Positions 1-13,646 of a DNA stretch of 21,644 bases are shown one piece after another (position 1 is the stretch's first letter; the number at the start of each line of letters is the position of its first letter). The position numbers and the translations under genes were made by a program. This stretch comes from a virus, in IMG/VR virus record IMGVR_UViG_3300002231_001584, positions 1 to 21,644 of that record; one strand, 5' to 3'. A model generated the notes under the pieces. It was not told where the DNA came from, searched no databases, and was given only the letters and a program-made list of their open reading frames with translations.

Positions 1-201
1 ATAATCAACTGTAAGAGGGGCTGTTATATTACCCGTGAAAGTAACCGTACTACTAAAGGTAACAGCACCAGTAAATGTATTGGTTCCTGTCCATGTGTTA
101 TTTGAAGCAACTAATGAGCCCGAATTAAAAATTGGGAATCCCGTTCCTTGAGAAAAAGCTAATGAACTAAACAACATTAATATTAAAATAACCTTTCGCA
201 T
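1..201 (-). CDS. Exported repeat-containing phage structural protein, N-terminal part
   Basis: The gene starts at the ATG at 201-199, preceded by a good AGGAG ribosome site, and runs off the left edge, so only 67 residues are visible. The first 18 residues form a classic Sec signal peptide: a basic start (MRK), a hydrophobic core, and a likely cut after LAFS before Q. The mature part then shows Thr/Phe-rich short repeats (TWTGTNTFTGAVTF, followed by related STVTFTGN), a pattern common in beta-structured fibre or adhesin stalks. It is the last visible gene of the leftward structural block and the neighbour of two other signal-peptide genes. A fibre or surface-adhesin role is an inference; the catalytic or binding part would lie outside the window. 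Confidence 0.7.
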   Translation of the reverse strand, partial: MRKVILILMLFSSLAFSQGTGFPIFNSGSLVASNNTWTGTNTFTGAVTFSSTVTFTGNITAPLTVDY

Positions 202-216
202 TTTTATCTCCTTTAT

Positions 217-1287
217 TTATTGTGGCCAATTTTCAAAGAAAGCCTTTGGCAATGTATATAAATATATATCTGTTAAATATTCATGTCCATCTATACTATT
301 ATTATCTCCAAGCCAAACGATACTATATGTAGAACTTGGCACTTCTGTTTCATAATTATTTACTAATCCCCAATATTCATCAGAGCCATCTATTTCTGTT
401 CCTACTCCCAATCCGGTAGTATACCCACTCGTTCCTAAATAAAATTCCAACTTTTGCCTTGAATCTGTTAAAGTATCTTCAGCAAAGACCCAGTAAAGAG
501 AATTAATATCATAAGAAGTAAAAGTTTCTCTAACTTCCCTTGCAGCAAATGTACTTCTCAAACCGCTTACATAAAGAGAATTATTCGCTATAGCAGAACT
601 TGCTCCACCAGAGGCAACCCAATCTACAGCTCCATCAGCAGGAAAATGCCATTCATTGACAATCGTAGCATAAGAATTAATATTAGCTCTATCTATCTTA
701 TAAATAGCCATAGTTTCTATAGCACCATTCCAAGTCTGAGAAACATGCCCATTATGTATCTTAAAATGAATATAATCACCAGGGCTAACTATAGTACTCC
801 CTTGATTTGGAGTTCCCCAAGTTCGCATAGTAGTATCTATATAGCTACCTGTTGTATATTTAAGAGAAGTAATGCTATCCCATGGAACATCAGTATATTG
901 TCCTTGTCCTAATGAAGATTGATAAGTTCCTATGTTATTTATTCCAACTATTTGAGGCCAAAGTCTCAACCATTCTTCATTCTGAGTAGATGACCATATA
1001 CTATCAAAATCTACTACAGCTAAGAAAAAATCTCCTTGATCATAATCATCTGTCGCACTTATCCATCCAAATTCTTCTCCTAAAGCAAGATTAGCAAAAC
1101 GTAATTTACCACCAGAAGCTGTTAAATCACCCGGGGTTCCGCTAGTCGTAATACTTGAAGGAATAAGATTATCTTCAAAATCCATGTATTCTACTAATTC
1201 CCATGGACTACCACCAACCATAATCATCTGACTATCCTGAGAAAAAACAAAACTTGATATAGCTAATAATAAAAATATCTTCTTCAT
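217..1287 (-). CDS. Exported beta-rich protein of unknown function in the structural block
   Basis: This is a 356-residue protein whose ATG overlaps the stop of the upstream gene (ATGA), so translation is probably coupled. Residues 1-17 are a Sec signal peptide (MKKIFLLLAISSFVFSQ), with cleavage likely before Q17. The mature part is rich in Trp, Tyr, Gly, Ser and Thr, with almost no cysteine, as in jelly-roll or lectin-like beta domains. I do not recognise a named family. Its place at the end of the virion gene block suggests a tail, fibre or appendage protein. The signal peptide instead suggests export into or across the host membrane, which is unusual for a virion protein. A carbohydrate-binding role is only a guess. 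Confidence 0.8.
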   Translation of the reverse strand: MKKIFLLLAISSFVFSQDSQMIMVGGSPWELVEYMDFEDNLIPSSITTSGTPGDLTASGGKLRFANLALGEEFGWISATDDYDQGDFFLAVVDFDSIWSSTQNEEWLRLWPQIVGINNIGTYQSSLGQGQYTDVPWDSITSLKYTTGSYIDTTMRTWGTPNQGSTIVSPGDYIHFKIHNGHVSQTWNGAIETMAIYKIDRANINSYATIVNEWHFPADGAVDWVASGGASSAIANNSLYVSGLRSTFAAREVRETFTSYDINSLYWVFAEDTLTDSRQKLEFYLGTSGYTTGLGVGTEIDGSDEYWGLVNNYETEVPSSTYSIVWLGDNNSIDGHEYLTDIYLYTLPKAFFENWPQ

Positions 1288-1749
1288 CGGTCTCTATAAG
1301 TTATAGTTATTGAAAAAACATTTACTGAATTTCCAGAAGTAGTAATTACTGGTGTTAAAATGTCTCCTGCATTAATTGAAGTAACATCAAAAGTTGTAGA
1401 TGTTACTCCTGTAGTAATAGCCGTAGCATCAGAAGTCATAATATCTGTACCAGCAACAATAGGCGTAGATGATGATCGTTGCTCAATATTAAATGCAACT
1501 GTTAAAGCACCTGTATAAGCATAGACCTCTGTAATAGTAATATTTTTTGGTACTTTCCATCCGGGAAAAATATCTGTTGCAAAGGTAGATCCTGTCTTAC
1601 CCCAAGAGATGCTATGTGTATTAATTACATAATCTGTAATAGCTGTTCCTGATCCATCCCAGAGGAATAGACTATCAACATAAAATTTTTCTCGTCTGCC
1701 CAAAAGAGATAGAACAAAGAATGAGTAAAAGTAATATTAATTTTTTCAT
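1284..1749 (-). CDS. Small exported beta-rich protein, reading frame broken by one extra base
   Basis: The gene starts at the ATG at 1749-1747, which overlaps the upstream stop codon (ATGA). From there it encodes MKKLILLLLILCSISFGQ, a clear Sec signal peptide, but this frame stops after about 25 codons. The downstream body (from TREKFYVDSLFLWDG to the stop at 1284) lies in the +1 frame. Removing one base from the T5 run at 1686-1690 (A5 in the gene) joins the two into a 154-residue protein, and the corrected length is divisible by three. A TTG start at 1703 for the body alone has no ribosome site. The body is Thr/Ser/Val-rich and beta-like (STTFDVTSINAGDILTPVIT), possibly a small fibre or decoration domain. 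The function is unknown. Confidence 0.75.
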
Positions 1750-2048
1750 GGTGCTATACTCGGTTGGTTGTCGCCCTCGACCTTCATATAGGCATCAGAG
1801 GCAACGGGTTTTTTCTTGAGAGCAGTACCTGTAGAAGACTTTACTATAACAACAAATTTTGCTGTTAAAGCTATGTTTAAGGAATAAGTACCATCTCCAT
1901 TATCTGTATATATTCCTATTAAAGTAGAATTAGTATTCGCGGCATAATCAGCAAGCTCATCACCTGTATTCCAAGTATGTGCCTCCATAATATATCCCGG
2001 AGCAGCACGACCTGTATTCTTATTTAAAATTGTTCTTTCATCTGTCAT
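1746..2048 (-). CDS. Small phage structural-block protein, unknown function
   Basis: This encodes 100 residues with no signal peptide or membrane segment. Start and stop both overlap neighbours by ATGA (at 2045-2048 and 1746-1749), so it is a tightly coupled member of the leftward operon. A motif of the type GIYTDNGDGTYSLNIALTAK looks like a beta-hairpin segment of a small immunoglobulin-like or neck-associated domain. I do not recognise the family. Its position, between the neck/adaptor gene and the exported proteins, fits a minor head-tail joining or tail protein, but this rests on context only. Confidence 0.75.
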   Translation of the reverse strand: MTDERTILNKNTGRAAPGYIMEAHTWNTGDELADYAANTNSTLIGIYTDNGDGTYSLNIALTAKFVVIVKSSTGTALKKKPVASDAYMKVEGDNQPSIAP

Positions 2049-2742
2049 TTTCTTAAAGCCCCCACTCCAATAGGTATTGAAACTCTTCCTCGTGTACCTC
2101 GTTTGTTATTAGCACTTCTTGCAACATTCCTGAAAAATTCAGCCTCATGTGATCTGGCTAAAGCAATCTGTTCTTTATCTTCAGCTAATCGCATCTTTAC
2201 ATAATAAACTAATGCTCTTGCCAAACGATCATCAATGGCAATGGTATCTGTAACAGAAGTAGGTGTAGAGACTTGTGTTGAATACTCAAGCATGATTGCA
2301 GCAGTATCAGCAACAGTAGGTGTTAAATATAATTTTCAACTCTTCGTGAAGAGAAAGGATAGCAATTGTTTGTCCAGAGATATAATATTTATATGTATTT
2401 AAATCAGTAGCCAAAATATCCTCACTAAATAATTATTATTTGATCATCATCAGTAACAGAGTCAACAGAAGAATCTTGTATAAGATTTACATTCTCTATG
2501 AGATCAATCTTCTGATAGATGCTATTATCAGAGTCCACAAGCTCATATACTCCATTAAGTTTTTTCATCGTACTTGGCAAACTATAAAAACGTGTATTAG
2601 CCACTATATCAATCGTGCTTCGTGTAGCATCTGATGGTGTTAAATCTGCTATAGCAGAAAGACCATCATTTATAAATTGTAGTATTCTGGCTTCTTCGCG
2701 AGAGCCAACTTGTTCCATAATATTAAGAACGGTTATTGACAT
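2045..2742 (-). CDS. Head-tail connector/neck protein, two frame-breaking extra bases
   Basis: The ATG at 2742 has a ribosome site (AAGGAGAAGCTA) inside the end of the upstream gene. The first frame encodes 105 residues and stops at 2425. A second stretch in the +1 frame (SEDILATDLNTYKYYISGQTIAILSLHEEL) and a third (KLYLTPTVADTAAIMLEYS through the end at 2045) clearly continue it. Deleting one base in the A3 run at 2427-2429 and one in the T4 run at 2333-2336 gives one protein of 231 residues. The pattern resembles phage adaptor/neck proteins: an early helical part, a YYI-SG beta hairpin, then helices of the type ALVYYVKMRLAEDKEQIALA. It probably sits between portal and tail. The family call is from recognition of this pattern, not from a search. 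Confidence 0.78.
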
Positions 2743-4803: not shown

Positions 4804-6300
4804 TTATTGAGCTTTTAACCAAGAAACATGCTTCTCGGGATTTTTTAGGCATTGACCTAATTGTGTTTGAATTAAACTGGCATACGCATCAATACCATCT
4901 TTCTCAAGGCTTTGAACTCCAGCATATACAGCCGTATCTCTATTCTTACCGTTACCCACCAAAGGACTAATTTCAACTTCATCCAAAGAAAGACCGGCAA
5001 TAGCAAGAGGACTATTATTTAAGTGGACATCTTCAACTAAATTGATATTACCCTTTGCAGTTTTAATAACACTAACATCAAGTAAACCAGCTCTAGCTTT
5101 CCCTGCATTTTCCATCTCATAACGGAAACTTGAATCAATATTTACATTATTCTTTAACAATCCACCAAGTAAGTTCAACCAATTATAAGTAGGTGTATCA
5201 GCTAAGAAAATCATATTATCTAAAGTTACTTCACTACCAGCATAAGTAAAATTAGTAATATCATGTAAGAAATCATCAGATGTAGCCGTATCAAGATCAA
5301 TAGAATACATAGGAGAATAATTTAATAGATAATCAACAAATCCCTGACATTGTCTGTTCTTACCAGACTTACCTTGAGAACTGAAATGTAACGCACGTTC
5401 AATATCAAGATTATGCTCAATAAGTTTATCAGCCCAAAGGCGCATCCACTCATTGGGATCATGTTTGAATACCGTAGCCATCATCTCTTCGTCCATCTCA
5501 AGAGCAGTTTTAAAAATCTGCATATAAGCGAAACCAGAGCTATACGGATTATCTTGCCATCCAGCAGGATAGCCGGTACCAGCCGCAAAAGAAGTACCAA
5601 TAACATGAGTTTGCTTGCTCACTAAATCAGTCTTTGTCTTTGCTAAACGTGTAGCATAAGTATCAGTTATTGCAACATTAGAAGCATAAGCACATATCTC
5701 AGTATCACCAGAAACAGGAACACTTTTGATAGTAGTTGTAACTTCAACATATGTATCAGAAACTTCAACAACATTAGTTATCAATGCAGTATAGTAACCC
5801 GTAGGCTGTCCACCACCACCAATAGTAGAGCCAACATTGATATTAATTATCTGACCCGCTATGAAAAACTTCGGTATCGTTCCAGCGGCTCCAACAGCAA
5901 AAGCAGCAGAACGTGCAGAAGAACTAACACCATCATATAGGTTGGGGATGTTACCCTCAGATTTATAATCAGTAGCAAGACGAAACAAATGAGTTGCGCC
6001 AACGGTAGTGCTAAGTGTAGCATCACCCGCAGAAATAGTAGTAGCACCATGGGCAATTACATAAGCATATCTTCTTGCTAAAGAACTTCTTTTTTCAAAA
6101 TATTTATATTCGGGATCTGTCTGACTTTTCTTACGGAAAGTAGACATTAGATAAAACCAAGGATCGCGTTTAAACGATAACTCAGAAGTACGAGGCATCC
6201 CAAATCGTCGCCTCAAATCACCAGTATCAAGGGTTGACCCTTGGCTGGCACTATTATTTTCGGTTAATCCGGTCATTCCGGGTATATCAAGACTTGCCAT
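4804..6300 (-). CDS. Major capsid protein, HK97-type fold expected
   Basis: This encodes 498 residues with a GAGAGGT ribosome site before the ATG at 6300. It follows the scaffold gene and precedes small capsid-associated genes, the standard position of the shell protein. Visible features are an N-terminal helical arm rich in charged residues (DLRRRFGMPRTSEL, KRDPWFYLMSTFRKKS), a glycine-rich loop near residue 165 (GGGGQPTGYY), a long helix with acidic residues (ALEMDEEMMATVFKHDP) resembling the spine helix region, and a C-terminal domain with conserved-looking KTAKGNINLVEDVHLNN and YAGVQSLEKDG. It is longer than the minimal HK97 shell protein (about 280-385 residues), leaving room for an insertion domain. 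The capsid call is firm from context; the fold is inferred. Confidence 0.85.
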   Translation of the reverse strand: MASLDIPGMTGLTENNSASQGSTLDTGDLRRRFGMPRTSELSFKRDPWFYLMSTFRKKSQTDPEYKYFEKRSSLARRYAYVIAHGATTISAGDATLSTTVGATHLFRLATDYKSEGNIPNLYDGVSSSARSAAFAVGAAGTIPKFFIAGQIININVGSTIGGGGQPTGYYTALITNVVEVSDTYVEVTTTIKSVPVSGDTEICAYASNVAITDTYATRLAKTKTDLVSKQTHVIGTSFAAGTGYPAGWQDNPYSSGFAYMQIFKTALEMDEEMMATVFKHDPNEWMRLWADKLIEHNLDIERALHFSSQGKSGKNRQCQGFVDYLLNYSPMYSIDLDTATSDDFLHDITNFTYAGSEVTLDNMIFLADTPTYNWLNLLGGLLKNNVNIDSSFRYEMENAGKARAGLLDVSVIKTAKGNINLVEDVHLNNSPLAIAGLSLDEVEISPLVGNGKNRDTAVYAGVQSLEKDGIDAYASLIQTQLGQCLKNPEKHVSWLKAQ

Positions 6301-6330
6301 TAGTTACCTCTCTTCATTGTAGAAGGAATA

Positions 6331-7213
6331 TCATCGAGTTTGTTTAAAGATATTCGCAACTGGGTTCTTCACCTTTTTTATAGCCTCAAACACGAGATCA
6401 TCATCACTCATTGCTTGCGCTGAAGAACTTGTTCCTGAAGCAGTGTTCGGAACTTGTAGCATACGCTCTCTTTGGTTAACCTTAGATTTATTATAATCTT
6501 TGATTACATTCCTATCACGATTTCCCAAATTCATTATCTGGAAAAGCATTTTATAGGTAAGCGTATTATTATTAGCCCAATCATCAATCTTAGCAATATC
6601 ATTATCAGTAAGATTAAATTCTTTCTTCAAATCAGCTTTCTCTTGAGCAAGATTTTTGATCTCTTTCAATAGATTCTTGTTTACGATCTCTGTCATCTAA
6701 ATTAGAATCAACAAGTTTTTGTGCTTGCTTTTTTACTTGTGCATTAAAAACTTTTGCACTTATAGACTCGGGATCACGCATAGCTTCATCGCTATCAAAA
6801 ATAAAATCTTCTGGTAAATTTAATTCTTCTTGTATGGATTTGGGTTCACTTTTTTCGCCAAAGTTCTGAACATGCTGAAAGAAATCTGGGTTCTTCTGCA
6901 TGGCTTCTATCATGGGGATAAATGGCTTGAGAGTTTCAAGTTGGCTGTTCAGTCGTTTAGCCTCGGTACCGGAATCTTCTAAGCGTTTTTCTAAACTCGT
7001 AATCTTCTTATTAGACTCATTTGGAGAGGGATTGGATTGACTTTCAACCCTTGCTCTCTCTTCATTGATAGCCTTGTTAAAAAGATTCTGAGGACTTACG
7101 GATGTTCCAATGTCTTCTTCAGATGTCTCACTTAGGAAAGCAAGATCATTGAATAAGCCTGCATTGTTATCTGCAACAGAATTGTTATCTCCTGTATTAT
7201 TGGCAACTGACAT
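6331..7213 (-). CDS. Scaffolding protein, frame broken by one extra base
   Basis: The gene lies between portal and major capsid genes. The first frame (ATG at 7213) encodes 193 residues and stops at 6632; the second frame overlaps it and runs to 6331. Deleting one base in the T5 run at 6653-6657 (A5 in the gene) gives one 293-residue protein. It reads smoothly through SIERDQ into NLAQEKADLKKEFNLTD. The protein is highly charged, Asn/Glu/Lys/Gln-rich and cysteine-free. It has a coiled-coil section (KKITSLEKRLEDSG to SQLETLKPF) and a lysine-rich C-terminus (FEAIKKVKNPVANIFKQTR), as expected for a capsid assembly scaffold whose basic tail binds the shell protein. The scaffold is normally released or cleaved before DNA packaging. 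Confidence 0.83.
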
Positions 7214-7261
7214 ATTTTATTTCTCCTTTTTTCTCAATTATTTTTCATGGATCAATATATA

Positions 7262-9546
7262 TCACTTTTTGGGCTTGTTGTCAACCTTTTGGGTTTTGTC
7301 TTTTACGAAGTCTTTTATCTTTTTCTTACCATAATCGACTTCTTGCTTAAACTCTCCTGCCAATAAACTCATCCTTGATTGATTATCAACAACATCTTTT
7401 CGCATCTCGCTGACCATACCAGCCTCCTTGACTTTTCATCCTCAATTCAAGCAGTTGTCTCTCAAGAGTCTCAATATCACCTTCACGCTTTTTGATTGCT
7501 CCTTCCAGACCTTCCACCTGACTACGAAGACCAGAGTAGATGCTTTTACGTTTCATCAGACCTTCTTTATCCTGAATATCTGTATGGCGAATAAATTCTA
7601 TGTCATCAATGATGCCAGACTCGAACCAACGGAAATATTCTTCTAACAAAGCCCACCTGTTGAGAGGCATAGTAGAACCAGCTACATAAGCTACATTATA
7701 TTCAGCAGATTGAAGATCGTTGTATCGTCCTACTTCATCACCCAAATCATTATACATCGGGATATTAACTTCTTCAGAGATACTCTTTACCTCGCCTGTC
7801 TCAGCATTTGGCTGAACGACTTTAAAGACTTTGTTTATTCCATAGGTGGCTTGAGCAAATTGATTTACTATAAGCCCAAGTTTCTCCATACCCGGCTCAA
7901 AAATATTAATTATCCAGCCACGCAGTCTTCGTGTAGAGAACTCATCATTCGCTAACATACCTCGATATGTCTCTGGTTGATCTTGGATGATACCCATAGC
8001 AGAACCAAACATACCAATCAGATACTCAATGTCAGATTGTCCTTTTTCTACAATGTTATAAAAGGCTGTGTTAAGTGGCATAGGCTGTATGAACTCAGGC
8101 TTAGTGCCATCACCTAAATTATTCCAATATAATCTAGCGCCAGCAACAGACATATTTGTATCCCATTCTTCATCATCCACTTGCCCTTGCTGTATCAAAG
8201 CTCTAAGGTTACTACCGAGAGAAGCATTATGAATCATAATCTGATGTGCTCGGTTTATTTCTTTTTGCTTTCCAATGGCAGGTGAGATAAAACTCATCGG
8301 GAAAGGAGTACCTGTAAAAATTGCAGGGATAGAAAATAATGGGTATTCGCTGATAGGTTCTGGCAATAGATATTCATAGAGAAGCTGATCGCCTACACTA
8401 CAATTTCTTTGTATACGTGTCTCATAATATGGTATTGCTGAAACGATAAATTCTTTTACAGATGGCTCGTCTTTTAGTAATTCGTATTCTTCTTTTGTAA
8501 TATTTCGTTGTTCTACTTTTGTGGAGTTTTCTCTGGCTTGAGAGATGAGAAGTTGTCTTCTATCGGCTAATGCTTTCTCTGCATCTTTACCGGCTTTCTC
8601 TAAATCAAAGTCATAGCGAGCCTTTATTATTTTCCCTTCTTGAAGCTGTTGCCCTAAATCATTTTTCAACTCTTGTAATTCAACATCGATCTCCATCTTC
8701 ATCTCAGTCATCTCTATCTCAATGGCTTTGTTGAACTCAGCTATATCCTTTGCTGAAGGAGGTATAGCAATAGTAACATTGACATAATCAACTTTTACCT
8801 TGCGATATTTTTCGTAATAATCCAACATATCACTAATAGAACCATCGATATTATATCCTTCGGTTATATCTTCTGGTTGGATGCTTAGGCTTTGTACTAA
8901 ATCTCGTTGGGAATAATTTTCAAATGTTGTTCCGAAACTAGCTTTTTTAATCTTTTTCTCATATTGTGGGAACATATCGAGTAGAGCTTGCCGTGTCTTT
9001 CTCTTATAGATGATCTTGGCAGAAGAGTCATCACCATAAGGATCACTGCTATCTGGTGCTTCGTAGACATCGAAAGCATTCTCCCACACTACGCGTACCT
9101 CACCAAGACCTCTATCACCATCAGGGTCTTGGATAACATGGAAATATCCTTTTGACTTAGTGATTATATCTGTTACTACCAGACCAAGAATAGATTTTCC
9201 TTTTGACCCATGCCATACATATTCTGTTATAGCAGCAAAGACAGCTGCAAAAATCAGTATCACTACCATCACGACCAACAGCTTGCCATCGTGGATTATT
9301 AGCAGTAAGGAAATATTTCATTAGCTCTACAGCAGGAAGAATCATGTTAATAATGAAATCGGGCATCCCGGCTGAATCTAATTTTGTCTGTAAGTCTGAA
9401 TTTATCTGATCGTTTAAAGCAAAGTCATAGCCCTCTTGATTTGTGAGGTGCCATTTTTCTCGGTGGGTGGTTTTGAATGATTGGAATAATGTATAATTCT
9501 CGTAGGCTTTATCCTTGTTTGATTTCCTTCTCTTTGTATCTAACAT
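7262..9546 (-). CDS. Portal protein (P22/podovirus-like), two frame-breaking extra bases
   Basis: The corrected gene runs from the ATG at 9546 (GGAGAACATAA ribosome site) to the stop at 7262 and encodes 760 residues. One extra base in the A5 run at 9249-9253 separates the first 99 residues from the main frame. A second in the T4 run at 7433-7436 displaces the last 60 or so codons (ELRMKVKEAGMVSEMRKDVV to KPKK). The order is: N-terminal wing segment, PDFIINMILPAVE helix, stem and crown. A long charged coiled-coil insertion lies near residues 267-340 (EMTEMKMEIDVELQEL). Motifs SAMGIIQDQPETYRGMLAND and STRRLRGWIINIFEP near the stem are typical of P22-type portals. It forms the dodecameric DNA entry ring that binds TerL. 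Upstream is a small Cys protein and TerL; downstream is the scaffold. Confidence 0.87.
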
Positions 9547-9718
9547 TTATGTTCTCCAATTTAAGGCGGTCAAGGAATTTATTATTATACTTTGGTCTGA
9601 TTCCATTACAACTAACAATATCATCTATTAAACTCTTTCCTTTCCCTCGTCCACAATTTTGCCCATTATTGAACGAAAATGGGCACTCTTTATCTATTTT
9701 TTTACAAAAATCGAACAT
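9509..9718 (-). CDS. Small cysteine-containing protein between TerL and portal
   Basis: This encodes 69 residues from the ATG at 9718, just after the TerL stop at 9732, and overlaps the portal start by 38 bases. Four cysteines in the first half (C5, C12, C22, C37), within a glycine/lysine stretch (NNGQNCGRGKGKSLIDD), suggest a metal-binding knuckle. The rest is basic and helical. The tight packing with its neighbours supports a real gene. The function is unknown; a small packaging or DNA-binding accessory is possible but not shown. Confidence 0.6.
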   Translation of the reverse strand: MFDFCKKIDKECPFSFNNGQNCGRGKGKSLIDDIVSCNGIRPKYNNKFLDRLKLENINVRYKEKEIKQG

Positions 9719-9731
9719 AAAATAGCCCTTT

Positions 9732-11366
9732 CTATCTGAATTGCCAAGTATTGGTAACAGTTTTTTTAAATTTCTTCTTTAATGATACTGTCAATTTTCT
9801 GTTTTGGTTGGGATAAGCTCTTGAGACTCCTATGTGTAAAGCATCGATTGTATCATCATGCGCCATCTTTGCACCGAAGGTAACGATCTCATTTTCCAAA
9901 TCGTACATAGTATTTTCTCTAATAAAGATTTTACTGGCTAAAAAACGCTGTCCAAGACTCGTATAAATACGATTTACCTTATCAGTCTTGCCAACAGGCT
10001 TAACAGGAATGACAATTATATCCCATCGGTTGAGAGTATTTCTTCTGTCATCGAGGGCTTGGAAGACAGAGCGTGTCATAGCCACATCTTCAACAGCGGC
10101 TGAGATGACATGGTAAGAATTATAAAAATCTATGATATAATCAATTACCCCTTTCCCACCTATCAGCTCACCAGAAAGATTACGTTGACCATAAGTAGGG
10201 ATATTCCTTCTGCGTTCATATTGCAGAACATAAACTTCATTTTTAGAATTTAAAGCGAATACTATTATTACCGAGAAATCAGCATGCTTGGTATTTATAT
10301 CTGTTGCCGGATCACAACCAATAAAAATGTTTACCTGCTCACGCTTGCCATTAGGATGTGCAATCCAATTCTGATCATCCGAACGGACATATTCAACATC
10401 ATGGTATCTAATGACTTTTCTACCTAAAGGAGCCGTTTCATCATTTTGTACCCGAAGTAAATATTCCTGATAATATCCTTGTACCCCTCTGGGGCTTGTG
10501 GCTATCTGGGCTTTCCTTGAAGCAAGATATTCTTTTGTTAGTCTCTCTGGCCATACCAAATTCCCTCTTTCATTGATAGCAGGATAATATAATATTGTCC
10601 ATGCCAAAACCCTGCGGAGATCAGGATCATCTTTGATCTTTTCATATCGTTCGATCATAGATTGCGTGAAACCTGCATAATGGACAGGGGTATTTATGAA
10701 GATAAATTTATTACCTAATTGCCCTTGCTCAATGCCGGGCATCAAAGCATTGGTGATGGTATCAGCAAATTTGTCGCGTGCATTATCTGTGATGGTATTC
10801 TGCTCATTCTCAGCATCATCAGCGATAATACAACTATAACGCTCTGCGCCAGTATCAACAGAAGACATCGTATCACCACGCAAAGAAGTAAGGTTCGAGG
10901 CTGATAGCATCCTGTCATCATATTTTGTCGTAATATCTTCCGCAGTCCATCGGCGACCCTTGAGATTACCAAAGACTTCAATGATCTTCTTATTAAACTC
11001 CAGCATGTCTTTGATGTATTGCGTATTATTTTGAGATTTTCTTTGAGATGATGACACCCAACCAATGTGCTCAGTCCTTCGTTGTCCAATACCCCATTCT
11101 TCTGCTACTTTAGAAAAACAAAGCTTTCTAAGGATATGTGCCTTGCATAAGGTAGTCTTAGCAAAGTCTCTGGTAGCAATGAGGGCAATAGGCTTTTTAT
11201 CTAATTTGTCAAATTCTTCCATCACCTCATAATGTGCCGGTGGAGAAGGAGCTTTCTGGAAATCGGGAAGAAAAAGTTTCCCAAAAGCAATCGTGGACTT
11301 AGATGCTTTCAGGAGAGCTTTTTCCATTTTGGATAGGTTGGGAAATTTTAGGTTTAGATTACTCAT
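9732..11366 (-). CDS. terL: Terminase large subunit (ATPase and nuclease)
   Basis: This encodes 544 residues, a normal TerL length. It pumps DNA into the prohead using ATP and cuts the concatemer. The N-terminal ATPase domain has a variant Walker A, ATRDFAKTT (residues 64-72, Lys70), a Walker B CIIADDAE (179-186, acidic residues 183, 184 and 186) and a coupling motif FINTP (224-226 core). The C-terminal RNase H-like nuclease has acidic residues in GCDPATD (D352, D356), AVEDVAM (E426, D427) and HDDTIDAL (D504, D505, D508), all three expected clusters. The frame is intact. Upstream are TerS and a small Lys-rich gene; downstream the portal. The ATPase motif reads R-x-F-x-K-T rather than the classical GK[TS], as in many podovirus terminases. 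Confidence 0.95.
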   Translation of the reverse strand: MSNLNLKFPNLSKMEKALLKASKSTIAFGKLFLPDFQKAPSPPAHYEVMEEFDKLDKKPIALIATRDFAKTTLCKAHILRKLCFSKVAEEWGIGQRRTEHIGWVSSSQRKSQNNTQYIKDMLEFNKKIIEVFGNLKGRRWTAEDITTKYDDRMLSASNLTSLRGDTMSSVDTGAERYSCIIADDAENEQNTITDNARDKFADTITNALMPGIEQGQLGNKFIFINTPVHYAGFTQSMIERYEKIKDDPDLRRVLAWTILYYPAINERGNLVWPERLTKEYLASRKAQIATSPRGVQGYYQEYLLRVQNDETAPLGRKVIRYHDVEYVRSDDQNWIAHPNGKREQVNIFIGCDPATDINTKHADFSVIIVFALNSKNEVYVLQYERRRNIPTYGQRNLSGELIGGKGVIDYIIDFYNSYHVISAAVEDVAMTRSVFQALDDRRNTLNRWDIIVIPVKPVGKTDKVNRIYTSLGQRFLASKIFIRENTMYDLENEIVTFGAKMAHDDTIDALHIGVSRAYPNQNRKLTVSLKKKFKKTVTNTWQFR

Positions 11367-13185: not shown

Positions 13186-13635
13186 CTATTCTTTGTCTTT
13201 GCTGTAATATGACATTAGTACGTCAAAACGTCTAATCTTCTTTTTCTTAGCCTTTGCAGAATCAAATAAAATATTTGGGTTTACCTGAAAGCCAAGCTCA
13301 AGCTCTTTTAAAATATCATTCTCTAAAAGCCTTGCTATGACAGAATAAACAGTGCCACGCGATACTTCCGTATGGCGAATGACCATCTCTTTTGTAACAA
13401 CAACACGATTGAGATGATCTCTATTCTCAATAAAATATAATAATACTTTCATTGCTTTATCGCTAATCAATCCAACAGCATACAATAGATTGTCAAGCCA
13501 CACTTTCTCCCATCCTATATCAACATCATAATGTTCAAAGTGTCCTGTCATTACTATCTCACCCGTTTCAGGATCAACAAGCTCTTTAAAGCCCATAATC
13601 TTTTTTCCTTTTCCAAGGGTCTTGTCATCTATCAC
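13186..13635 (-). CDS. RepL-like winged-helix protein
   Basis: The start is the GTG at 13635, five bases after GGAGG within a complete AGGAGGTGAT ribosome site. An earlier in-frame GTG at 13641 lies inside that site and is not used. The product has 149 residues. It begins with DPETGEI and then WEKVWLDNLLYAVGLISDKAMKVLLYFIENRD. A winged helix follows: VVVTKEMVIRHTEVSRGTVYSVIARLL with NDILKE and a final FQVNPNILF strand. This is the layout of the Firmicute plasmid replication protein family RepL (Pfam RepL), in which a wHTH binds DNA. It could act as a replication initiator or as a transcription regulator. Its place close to the non-coding divergent region is notable. Family recognition is from memory of the pattern, without a search. 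Confidence 0.72.
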   Translation of the reverse strand: MIDDKTLGKGKKIMGFKELVDPETGEIVMTGHFEHYDVDIGWEKVWLDNLLYAVGLISDKAMKVLLYFIENRDHLNRVVVTKEMVIRHTEVSRGTVYSVIARLLENDILKELELGFQVNPNILFDSAKAKKKKIRRFDVLMSYYSKDKE

Positions 13636-13646
13636 GATCACCTCCT

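What the first reader, a model, noticed from the sequence alone, without database searches (positions are those of the whole stretch)
1..1749. Three consecutive genes at the end of the virion block encode Sec signal peptides
The genes at 1-201, 217-1287 and 1284-1749 each begin with a clear host-like signal peptide ending in FSQ or FGQ, one visible only after undoing a frame break. Virion proteins normally have no signal peptide. A phage that exports several beta-rich proteins, possibly to coat or modify the host surface or as envelope-anchored appendages, would be unusual. The peptides also give a hint of the host group.
Basis: partly seen in the sequence, partly recalled or inferred. Interest (0 to 1): 0.65.

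Follow-up and report, generated by a model that had tools for sequence, protein, structure and literature searches.

The report
Exported fibre-like proteins in phage operon
A tailed phage ends its known particle-building gene block with at least three genes carrying export tags for the bacterial cell envelope, and two distant relatives do the same, suggesting that these phages send fibre-like proteins out through the host's own secretion pathway, which tailed phages are not normally known to do.

Summary
The ORFs at 1-201 (cut by the contig end), 217-1287 and 1284-1749 (interrupted by a frame break) each start with a textbook Sec signal peptide, with Gln as first mature residue. Two are coupled to the virion operon by ATGA overlaps. 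In 219 loci (3,169 ORFs) a strict search for such peptides found 9 where shuffling predicts 1.2. Seven are late-strand genes of only three contigs: the window, L187 and L010.

L187 shares the window's gene order and has tandem signal-peptide genes in the same slot. The conserved mature start (RKxxVDSLF) shows that signal peptide and body of gene C belong together, so the break is very probably an assembly indel; portal and scaffold genes of this contig are broken too. L010 has a signal peptide on a >=752-aa tail-fibre-like protein. L187's protein belongs to a secreted Bacteroidota family and ends in a transmembrane helix.

I read them as late, Sec-exported, fibre/adhesin-like proteins directed to the infected cell's envelope, perhaps masking receptors. 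Virion fibres attached outside the cytoplasm remain possible. Gln at +1 suggests a Bacteroidota-like host, but heavy Shine-Dalgarno use argues against a typical one. Sequence alone cannot settle particle versus cell surface.

The parts
1..201 (-). Gene A, 67 aa, open at the contig end; fibre-like Thr/Ser-rich repeats (NTWTGTNTFTGAVTFSSTVTFTG)
   Evidence: only weak matches to Beta_helix and a tail-fibre PHROG (E 0.008 and 0.2)
151..201 (-). Signal peptide of gene A (MRKVILILMLFSSLAFS, Q at +1)
   Evidence: sequence; rule-based; strong Shine-Dalgarno AAAGGAG before the start
217..1287 (-). Gene B, 356 aa, no convincing homologue found
   Evidence: one dubious hit (E 0.003, frame with stops) in 395 Bacteroidota genomes
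1240..1287 (-). Signal peptide of gene B (MKKIFLLLAISSFVFS, Q at +1); ATGA overlap with gene C at 1284-1287
   Evidence: sequence
1284..1749 (-). Gene C: signal peptide in one frame, 134-residue body in another (ORF 1284-1703)
   Evidence: break attributed to an assembly indel
1699..1749 (-). Signal peptide of gene C (MKKLILLLLILCSISFG, Q at +1); ATGA overlap with the upstream gene at 1746-1749
   Evidence: sequence
1638..1688 (-). Conserved mature N-terminus KFYVDSLFLWDGSGTAI, shared with the L187 signal-peptide genes
1746..2048 (-). 100-aa late gene directly upstream; homologues in L003 (56%) and L187 (36%), which fixes the synteny
4804..11366 (-). Late block core: SU10-type capsid protein (4804-6300), scaffold, P22-type portal, terminase large subunit (9732-11366)

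Best explanation
The three genes are genuine late genes of a podovirus-like phage. They encode beta-rich, fibre- or adhesin-like proteins that the host exports through Sec, with signal peptidase I cutting before a glutamine. Shown from sequence: the signal peptides, operon coupling, recurrence in the same slot of a relative, and the fibre or secreted-adhesin identity of the counterparts in L010 and L187. Inferred: that export happens, and that the products act at the envelope or surface of the infected cell, where such binding proteins most plausibly mask or block the phage's own receptor (superinfection exclusion, less re-adsorption of progeny to debris). My estimates: exported at all 0.85; mainly an envelope role rather than a virion role 0.5; the receptor-masking step is the weakest.
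For: Seven of nine Sec+Gln N-termini in 3,169 ORFs fall in three related contigs against 1.2 expected in all. ATGA coupling and a strong Shine-Dalgarno site fix the starts. L187 has two tandem signal-peptide genes right after the homologue of window 1746-2048, with the same mature start as gene C. L187's 512-aa protein matches secreted Bacteroidota proteins, nearly all with signal peptides, and ends in a transmembrane helix plus positive residues, a type I membrane topology that fits an envelope place. Fibre-domain proteins with signal peptides are ordinary secreted proteins of Bacteroidota (15 of 17). Precedent: T5 Llp, an exported late protein encoded next to the receptor-binding protein gene, blocks the receptor (PMC9586334).
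Against: L010's signal-peptide protein looks like a true tail fibre by homology, which favours a particle role. A conserved N-terminus with variable remainder is typical of parts that dock to a common structure such as a tail. Genes A-C have no transmembrane anchor after the signal peptide and no lipobox. No domain in A-C shows binding or receptor masking. No SignalP run and no protein data.
Confidence: 0.5

Rival explanations
1. They are true fibres or tail appendages of the particle that travel through Sec, mature in the periplasm (cut before Gln, capped as pyroglutamate) and join the tail outside the cytoplasm or at lysis.
For: Position at the fibre end of the late block, coupled to adaptor-like genes. 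L010's >=752-aa signal-peptide protein matches virion structural and tail-fibre families and annotated phage fibres and has no match in 99 Bacteroidota genomes. Mature N-terminus conserved between gene C and L187 while the rest differs. No other fibre gene is visible in these incomplete contigs.
Against: Tailed phages assemble in the cytoplasm (established knowledge). Two phage homologues of the L010 fibre have no signal peptide. L187's product has a C-terminal transmembrane helix. Four Bacteroidota phages show no such peptide on annotated structural proteins.
Confidence: 0.28
2. The N-terminal hydrophobic segments are uncleaved and serve as membrane or particle anchors rather than as export signals.
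For: The segments are hydrophobic, and anchoring N-termini exist in phage proteins (general knowledge).
Against: Short positive n-region, 10-14-residue core and small residue before Gln in every case, as expected for cleaved Q-rule substrates (PMC5837995); a transmembrane anchor would not need the cleavage pattern. Homologues of the L187 protein in Bacteroidota carry the same type of peptide.
Confidence: 0.1
3. Incidental cargo: host-derived secreted adhesin genes carried as late passengers (morons) that alter host surface or aggregation, without a role in receptor masking or particles.
For: L187's protein belongs to a secreted Bacteroidota family; tandem paralogues in L187.
Against: ATGA coupling to virion genes and the recurrence of the slot in diverged relatives suggest a retained function tied to the late programme.
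Confidence: 0.12

Closest known systems
Secreted tail-fibre-domain proteins of Bacteroidota (Peptidase_S74 PF13884 and related GIGT...DYVFE C-terminal modules)
   Same: Sec signal peptide with Gln at +1 before fibre-like beta repeats; L187's phage protein is homologous
   Different: Encoded in a phage late operon; window genes A-C show no sequence match to this family; L187's copy ends in a transmembrane helix
Tail fibres of Caudoviricetes
   Same: Position after adaptor genes; L010's protein matches tail-fibre and virion structural families
   Different: Known homologues start without a signal peptide; virion presence unknown
T5 Llp and Cor superinfection-exclusion lipoproteins
   Same: Exported late phage proteins; Llp is encoded next to the receptor-binding protein gene (PMC9586334)
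   Different: No lipobox, larger, fibre-like, several in tandem; function untested
Minor coat proteins of filamentous phages such as pIII (from memory)
   Same: Signal peptide plus C-terminal membrane anchor, as in L187's product
   Different: No sequence relation tested; this is a tailed phage with SU10-type capsid, portal and terminase

Membership tests
Sec/SPI substrates under the Bacteroidetes Q-rule | n-region positive, hydrophobic core, small residue before the cut | tested here: met
   All three window proteins by sequence; rule-based, two detected directly and gene C by eye
Sec/SPI substrates under the Bacteroidetes Q-rule | Gln at +1 | tested here: met
   3 of 3 in window; 3 of 3 in L010 also in a scan that did not ask for Gln; 2 of 2 in L187
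Sec/SPI substrates under the Bacteroidetes Q-rule | Host of typical Bacteroidetes kind, without Shine-Dalgarno use | tested here: not met
   62% of window genes have a motif against 0-7% in four Bacteroidota phages (PMC3155529)
Sec/SPI substrates under the Bacteroidetes Q-rule | Cleavage and pyroglutamate in the protein | not testable with these tools
   needs mass spectrometry
Tail fibre of Caudoviricetes | Homology to fibre families | tested here: inconclusive
   Window genes: weak or none; L010 counterpart: met
Tail fibre of Caudoviricetes | Location among late structural genes | tested here: met
Tail fibre of Caudoviricetes | Present in the particle | not testable with these tools
   needs virion proteomics
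Secreted Bacteroidota fibre-domain family | Sequence homology to the family | tested here: not met
   Window genes B and C: no credible match in 395 and 99 genomes; L187's protein does match
Llp/Cor-type superinfection-exclusion lipoprotein | Lipobox with Cys at +1 | tested here: not met
   Gln, not Cys, at +1
Type IX secretion cargo | C-terminal Por_Secre_tail type domain | tested here: not met
   No Pfam match in genes B and C at E 1 other than an unrelated weak hit; gene A is truncated, so untested there

The most novel reading that the evidence does not exclude
A lineage of tailed phages exports its receptor-binding fibres through the host Sec pathway, has them cut by signal peptidase and capped as pyroglutamate, and completes its tails outside the cytoplasm or at lysis, breaking the rule that tailed phages assemble wholly in the cytoplasm.
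Probability: 0.22. Interest if true: 0.85.

Novelty: new variant of a known kind. Interest (0 to 1): 0.6.

Why it matters
Exported proteins in or near the fibre slot of three related but diverged contigs would mean that a phage lineage either dresses its infected host with fibre-like proteins or builds part of its particle outside the cytoplasm. It also gives a sequence signature (Sec peptide + Gln + RKxxVDSLF after the adaptor-like genes) for finding more members, and a host clue (Gln rule together with Shine-Dalgarno use).

Tried and rejected
Direct homologue searches for genes B and C in viral contigs and phage records found nothing. Family scans, the PDB search and NCBIfam gave nothing usable. 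AlphaFold without an alignment gave mean pLDDT 36 (gene B) and 48 (body of gene C), too poor for a fold search. Searches with L010's two virion-block signal-peptide proteins returned only L010 itself. Programmed frameshifting in gene C was considered and set aside because conserved genes of the same contig are broken too. A typical Bacteroidota host was considered and downgraded because of Shine-Dalgarno use. The first signal-peptide rules missed L187 because they forbade proline in the core; the later rule allows it. Homology between L010's 281-aa signal-peptide protein and the window's 202-aa protein was rejected. Ten literature searches found no report of Sec signal peptides on fibres of tailed phages; one paper takes the absence of signal peptides from phage DGR proteins as support for their phage origin (PMC6199706). 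Only open-licence papers were searched, so absence of a report is weak evidence.

Full report
What is there. The window is bases 1-21,644 of a 25,342-base virus record. Genes from about 13.6 kb down to 1 run on the - strand and form a late block: terminase, P22-type portal, scaffold, SU10-type capsid protein and adaptor-like genes. After the 100-aa gene at 1746-2048 come gene C (1284-1749), gene B (217-1287) and gene A (1-201, cut off by the contig end). Gene C overlaps its upstream neighbour, and gene B overlaps gene C, by ATGA; gene A has a strong Shine-Dalgarno sequence. The start codons, and therefore the N-termini, are well fixed.

The signal peptides. Each protein begins with a short positive n-region, a hydrophobic core of about 10-14 residues and a small residue before glutamine. 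A strict search for such N-termini in 219 loci (3,169 ORFs) found nine, with 1.2 expected from shuffled N-termini; seven are late-strand genes in just three contigs: window (two; the third is hidden by the frame break), L010 (three) and L187 (two). The other two hits look spurious by position or composition. A hydrophobicity-only scan that did not ask for glutamine found the same three L010 genes. Some of the 219 loci overlap one another, so the ORF count is not fully independent.

The frame break. Relative to L003, whose capsid protein is 73% identical, the window breaks the portal twice and the scaffold once, and its 121-aa adaptor-like homologue matches only from residue 28. Portal and scaffold are genes a phage cannot easily lose, so the contig probably has indel errors, and the break in gene C is best read as one more. 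In L187 the equivalent gene is continuous across the same place, and the first 17 residues of gene C's body match it in fixed register better than any of 200,000 shuffles.

The slot in relatives. L187 (terminase 48% identical) has the same order: adaptor-like genes, then the 114- and 92-aa genes, then a 512-aa protein starting MFNKIIFLVLIPMLIFS|QSRKLWVDSLF and a tandem gene starting MTKKIIYIVLIPILLFS|QSRRLWVDSLF. The 512-aa protein matches Bacteroidota proteins in its ISGG/IGGG repeats and in its GIGT...DYVFE module; nearly all of those homologues have signal peptides. It ends in a hydrophobic helix followed by positive residues. L010 (capsid protein about 40% identical) carries a signal peptide on a >=752-aa protein that matches virion and tail-fibre families, on a 281-aa protein between capsid and adaptor genes, and on an 82-aa protein. 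The L010 fibre has no match in 99 Bacteroidota genomes, and the two phage homologues I checked have no signal peptide.

Controls. Four Bacteroidota phages (Cellulophaga phi38:1, Nonlabens P12024L, Polaribacter P12002L, Flavobacterium 6H) show no Gln-type signal peptide on an annotated structural protein; phi38:1 has one on a 97-aa hypothetical protein. That scan used the older rule, which forbids proline in the core. Of 17 Peptidase_S74 fibre-domain proteins in Bacteroidota genomes, 15 carry signal peptides (14 by rule, one by eye), so the combination is ordinary in hosts but was not seen in those phages.

Host. Glutamine at +1 in all eight points to a Q-rule host: Bacteroidetes average 71%, and some others such as Ignavibacterium album reach 77% (PMC5837995). 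But 62-79% of genes in the window, L003 and L010 have Shine-Dalgarno motifs against 0-7% in the Bacteroidota phages, and Bacteroidetes and Chlorobi lack them (PMC3155529). A Q-rule lineage outside typical Bacteroidota is the better guess. The only match in the genome collection was a 9-kb contig in a Flavobacteriales MAG; it uses Shine-Dalgarno motifs too and may be mis-binned.

How it may work. Shown: peptides, operon coupling, recurrence of the slot. Inferred: export. The counterparts in relatives are fibre- or adhesin-like, and one is membrane-anchored, which fits a role at the infected cell's envelope; by analogy with T5 Llp (PMC9586334) receptor masking is an economical function, but nothing in genes A-C shows it. 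The rival is that they are particle fibres delivered through Sec: L010's fibre homology and the conserved mature N-terminus speak for it, cytoplasmic assembly of tailed phages and L187's membrane anchor against it. Sequence cannot decide.

Verdict.

Noticed in passing
window 6331-7213, 7268-9525 and 2045-2332 (-): Scaffold, portal and an adaptor-like gene are broken by frame changes relative to L003; the contig also holds ambiguous bases further on (L002). Sequence quality of this record is low.
   Followed up: partly
window 13186-13641 (-): RepL-like replication protein (Pfam RepL, E 1.8e-17) just upstream of the late block, with a homologue in L003; unusual in a tailed phage of this kind.
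   Followed up: no
L010 11975-12820 (+): 281-aa protein with Sec signal peptide between capsid and adaptor genes, starting 4 bases after the preceding gene ends.
   Followed up: partly
L010 4224-4472 (+): Small signal-peptide protein upstream of the terminase (MKKLIVLLFMVIAFG|QEVEV...); possibly a lysis or periplasmic protein.
   Followed up: no
L187 17443-18981 (+): Phage-encoded relative of secreted Bacteroidota adhesin-type proteins that, unlike those, ends in a transmembrane helix; a tandem second copy starts directly after it.
   Followed up: partly
L144 31090-31383 (-), Cellulophaga phage phi38:1 gp052: 97-aa hypothetical protein with a clear signal peptide and Gln at +1, outside the structural genes.
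   Followed up: no
L141 (NHFY01000002.1): 9-kb relative of this phage group binned in a Flavobacteriales MAG, but with Shine-Dalgarno motifs before 67% of its genes, which suggests mis-binning.
   Followed up: partly
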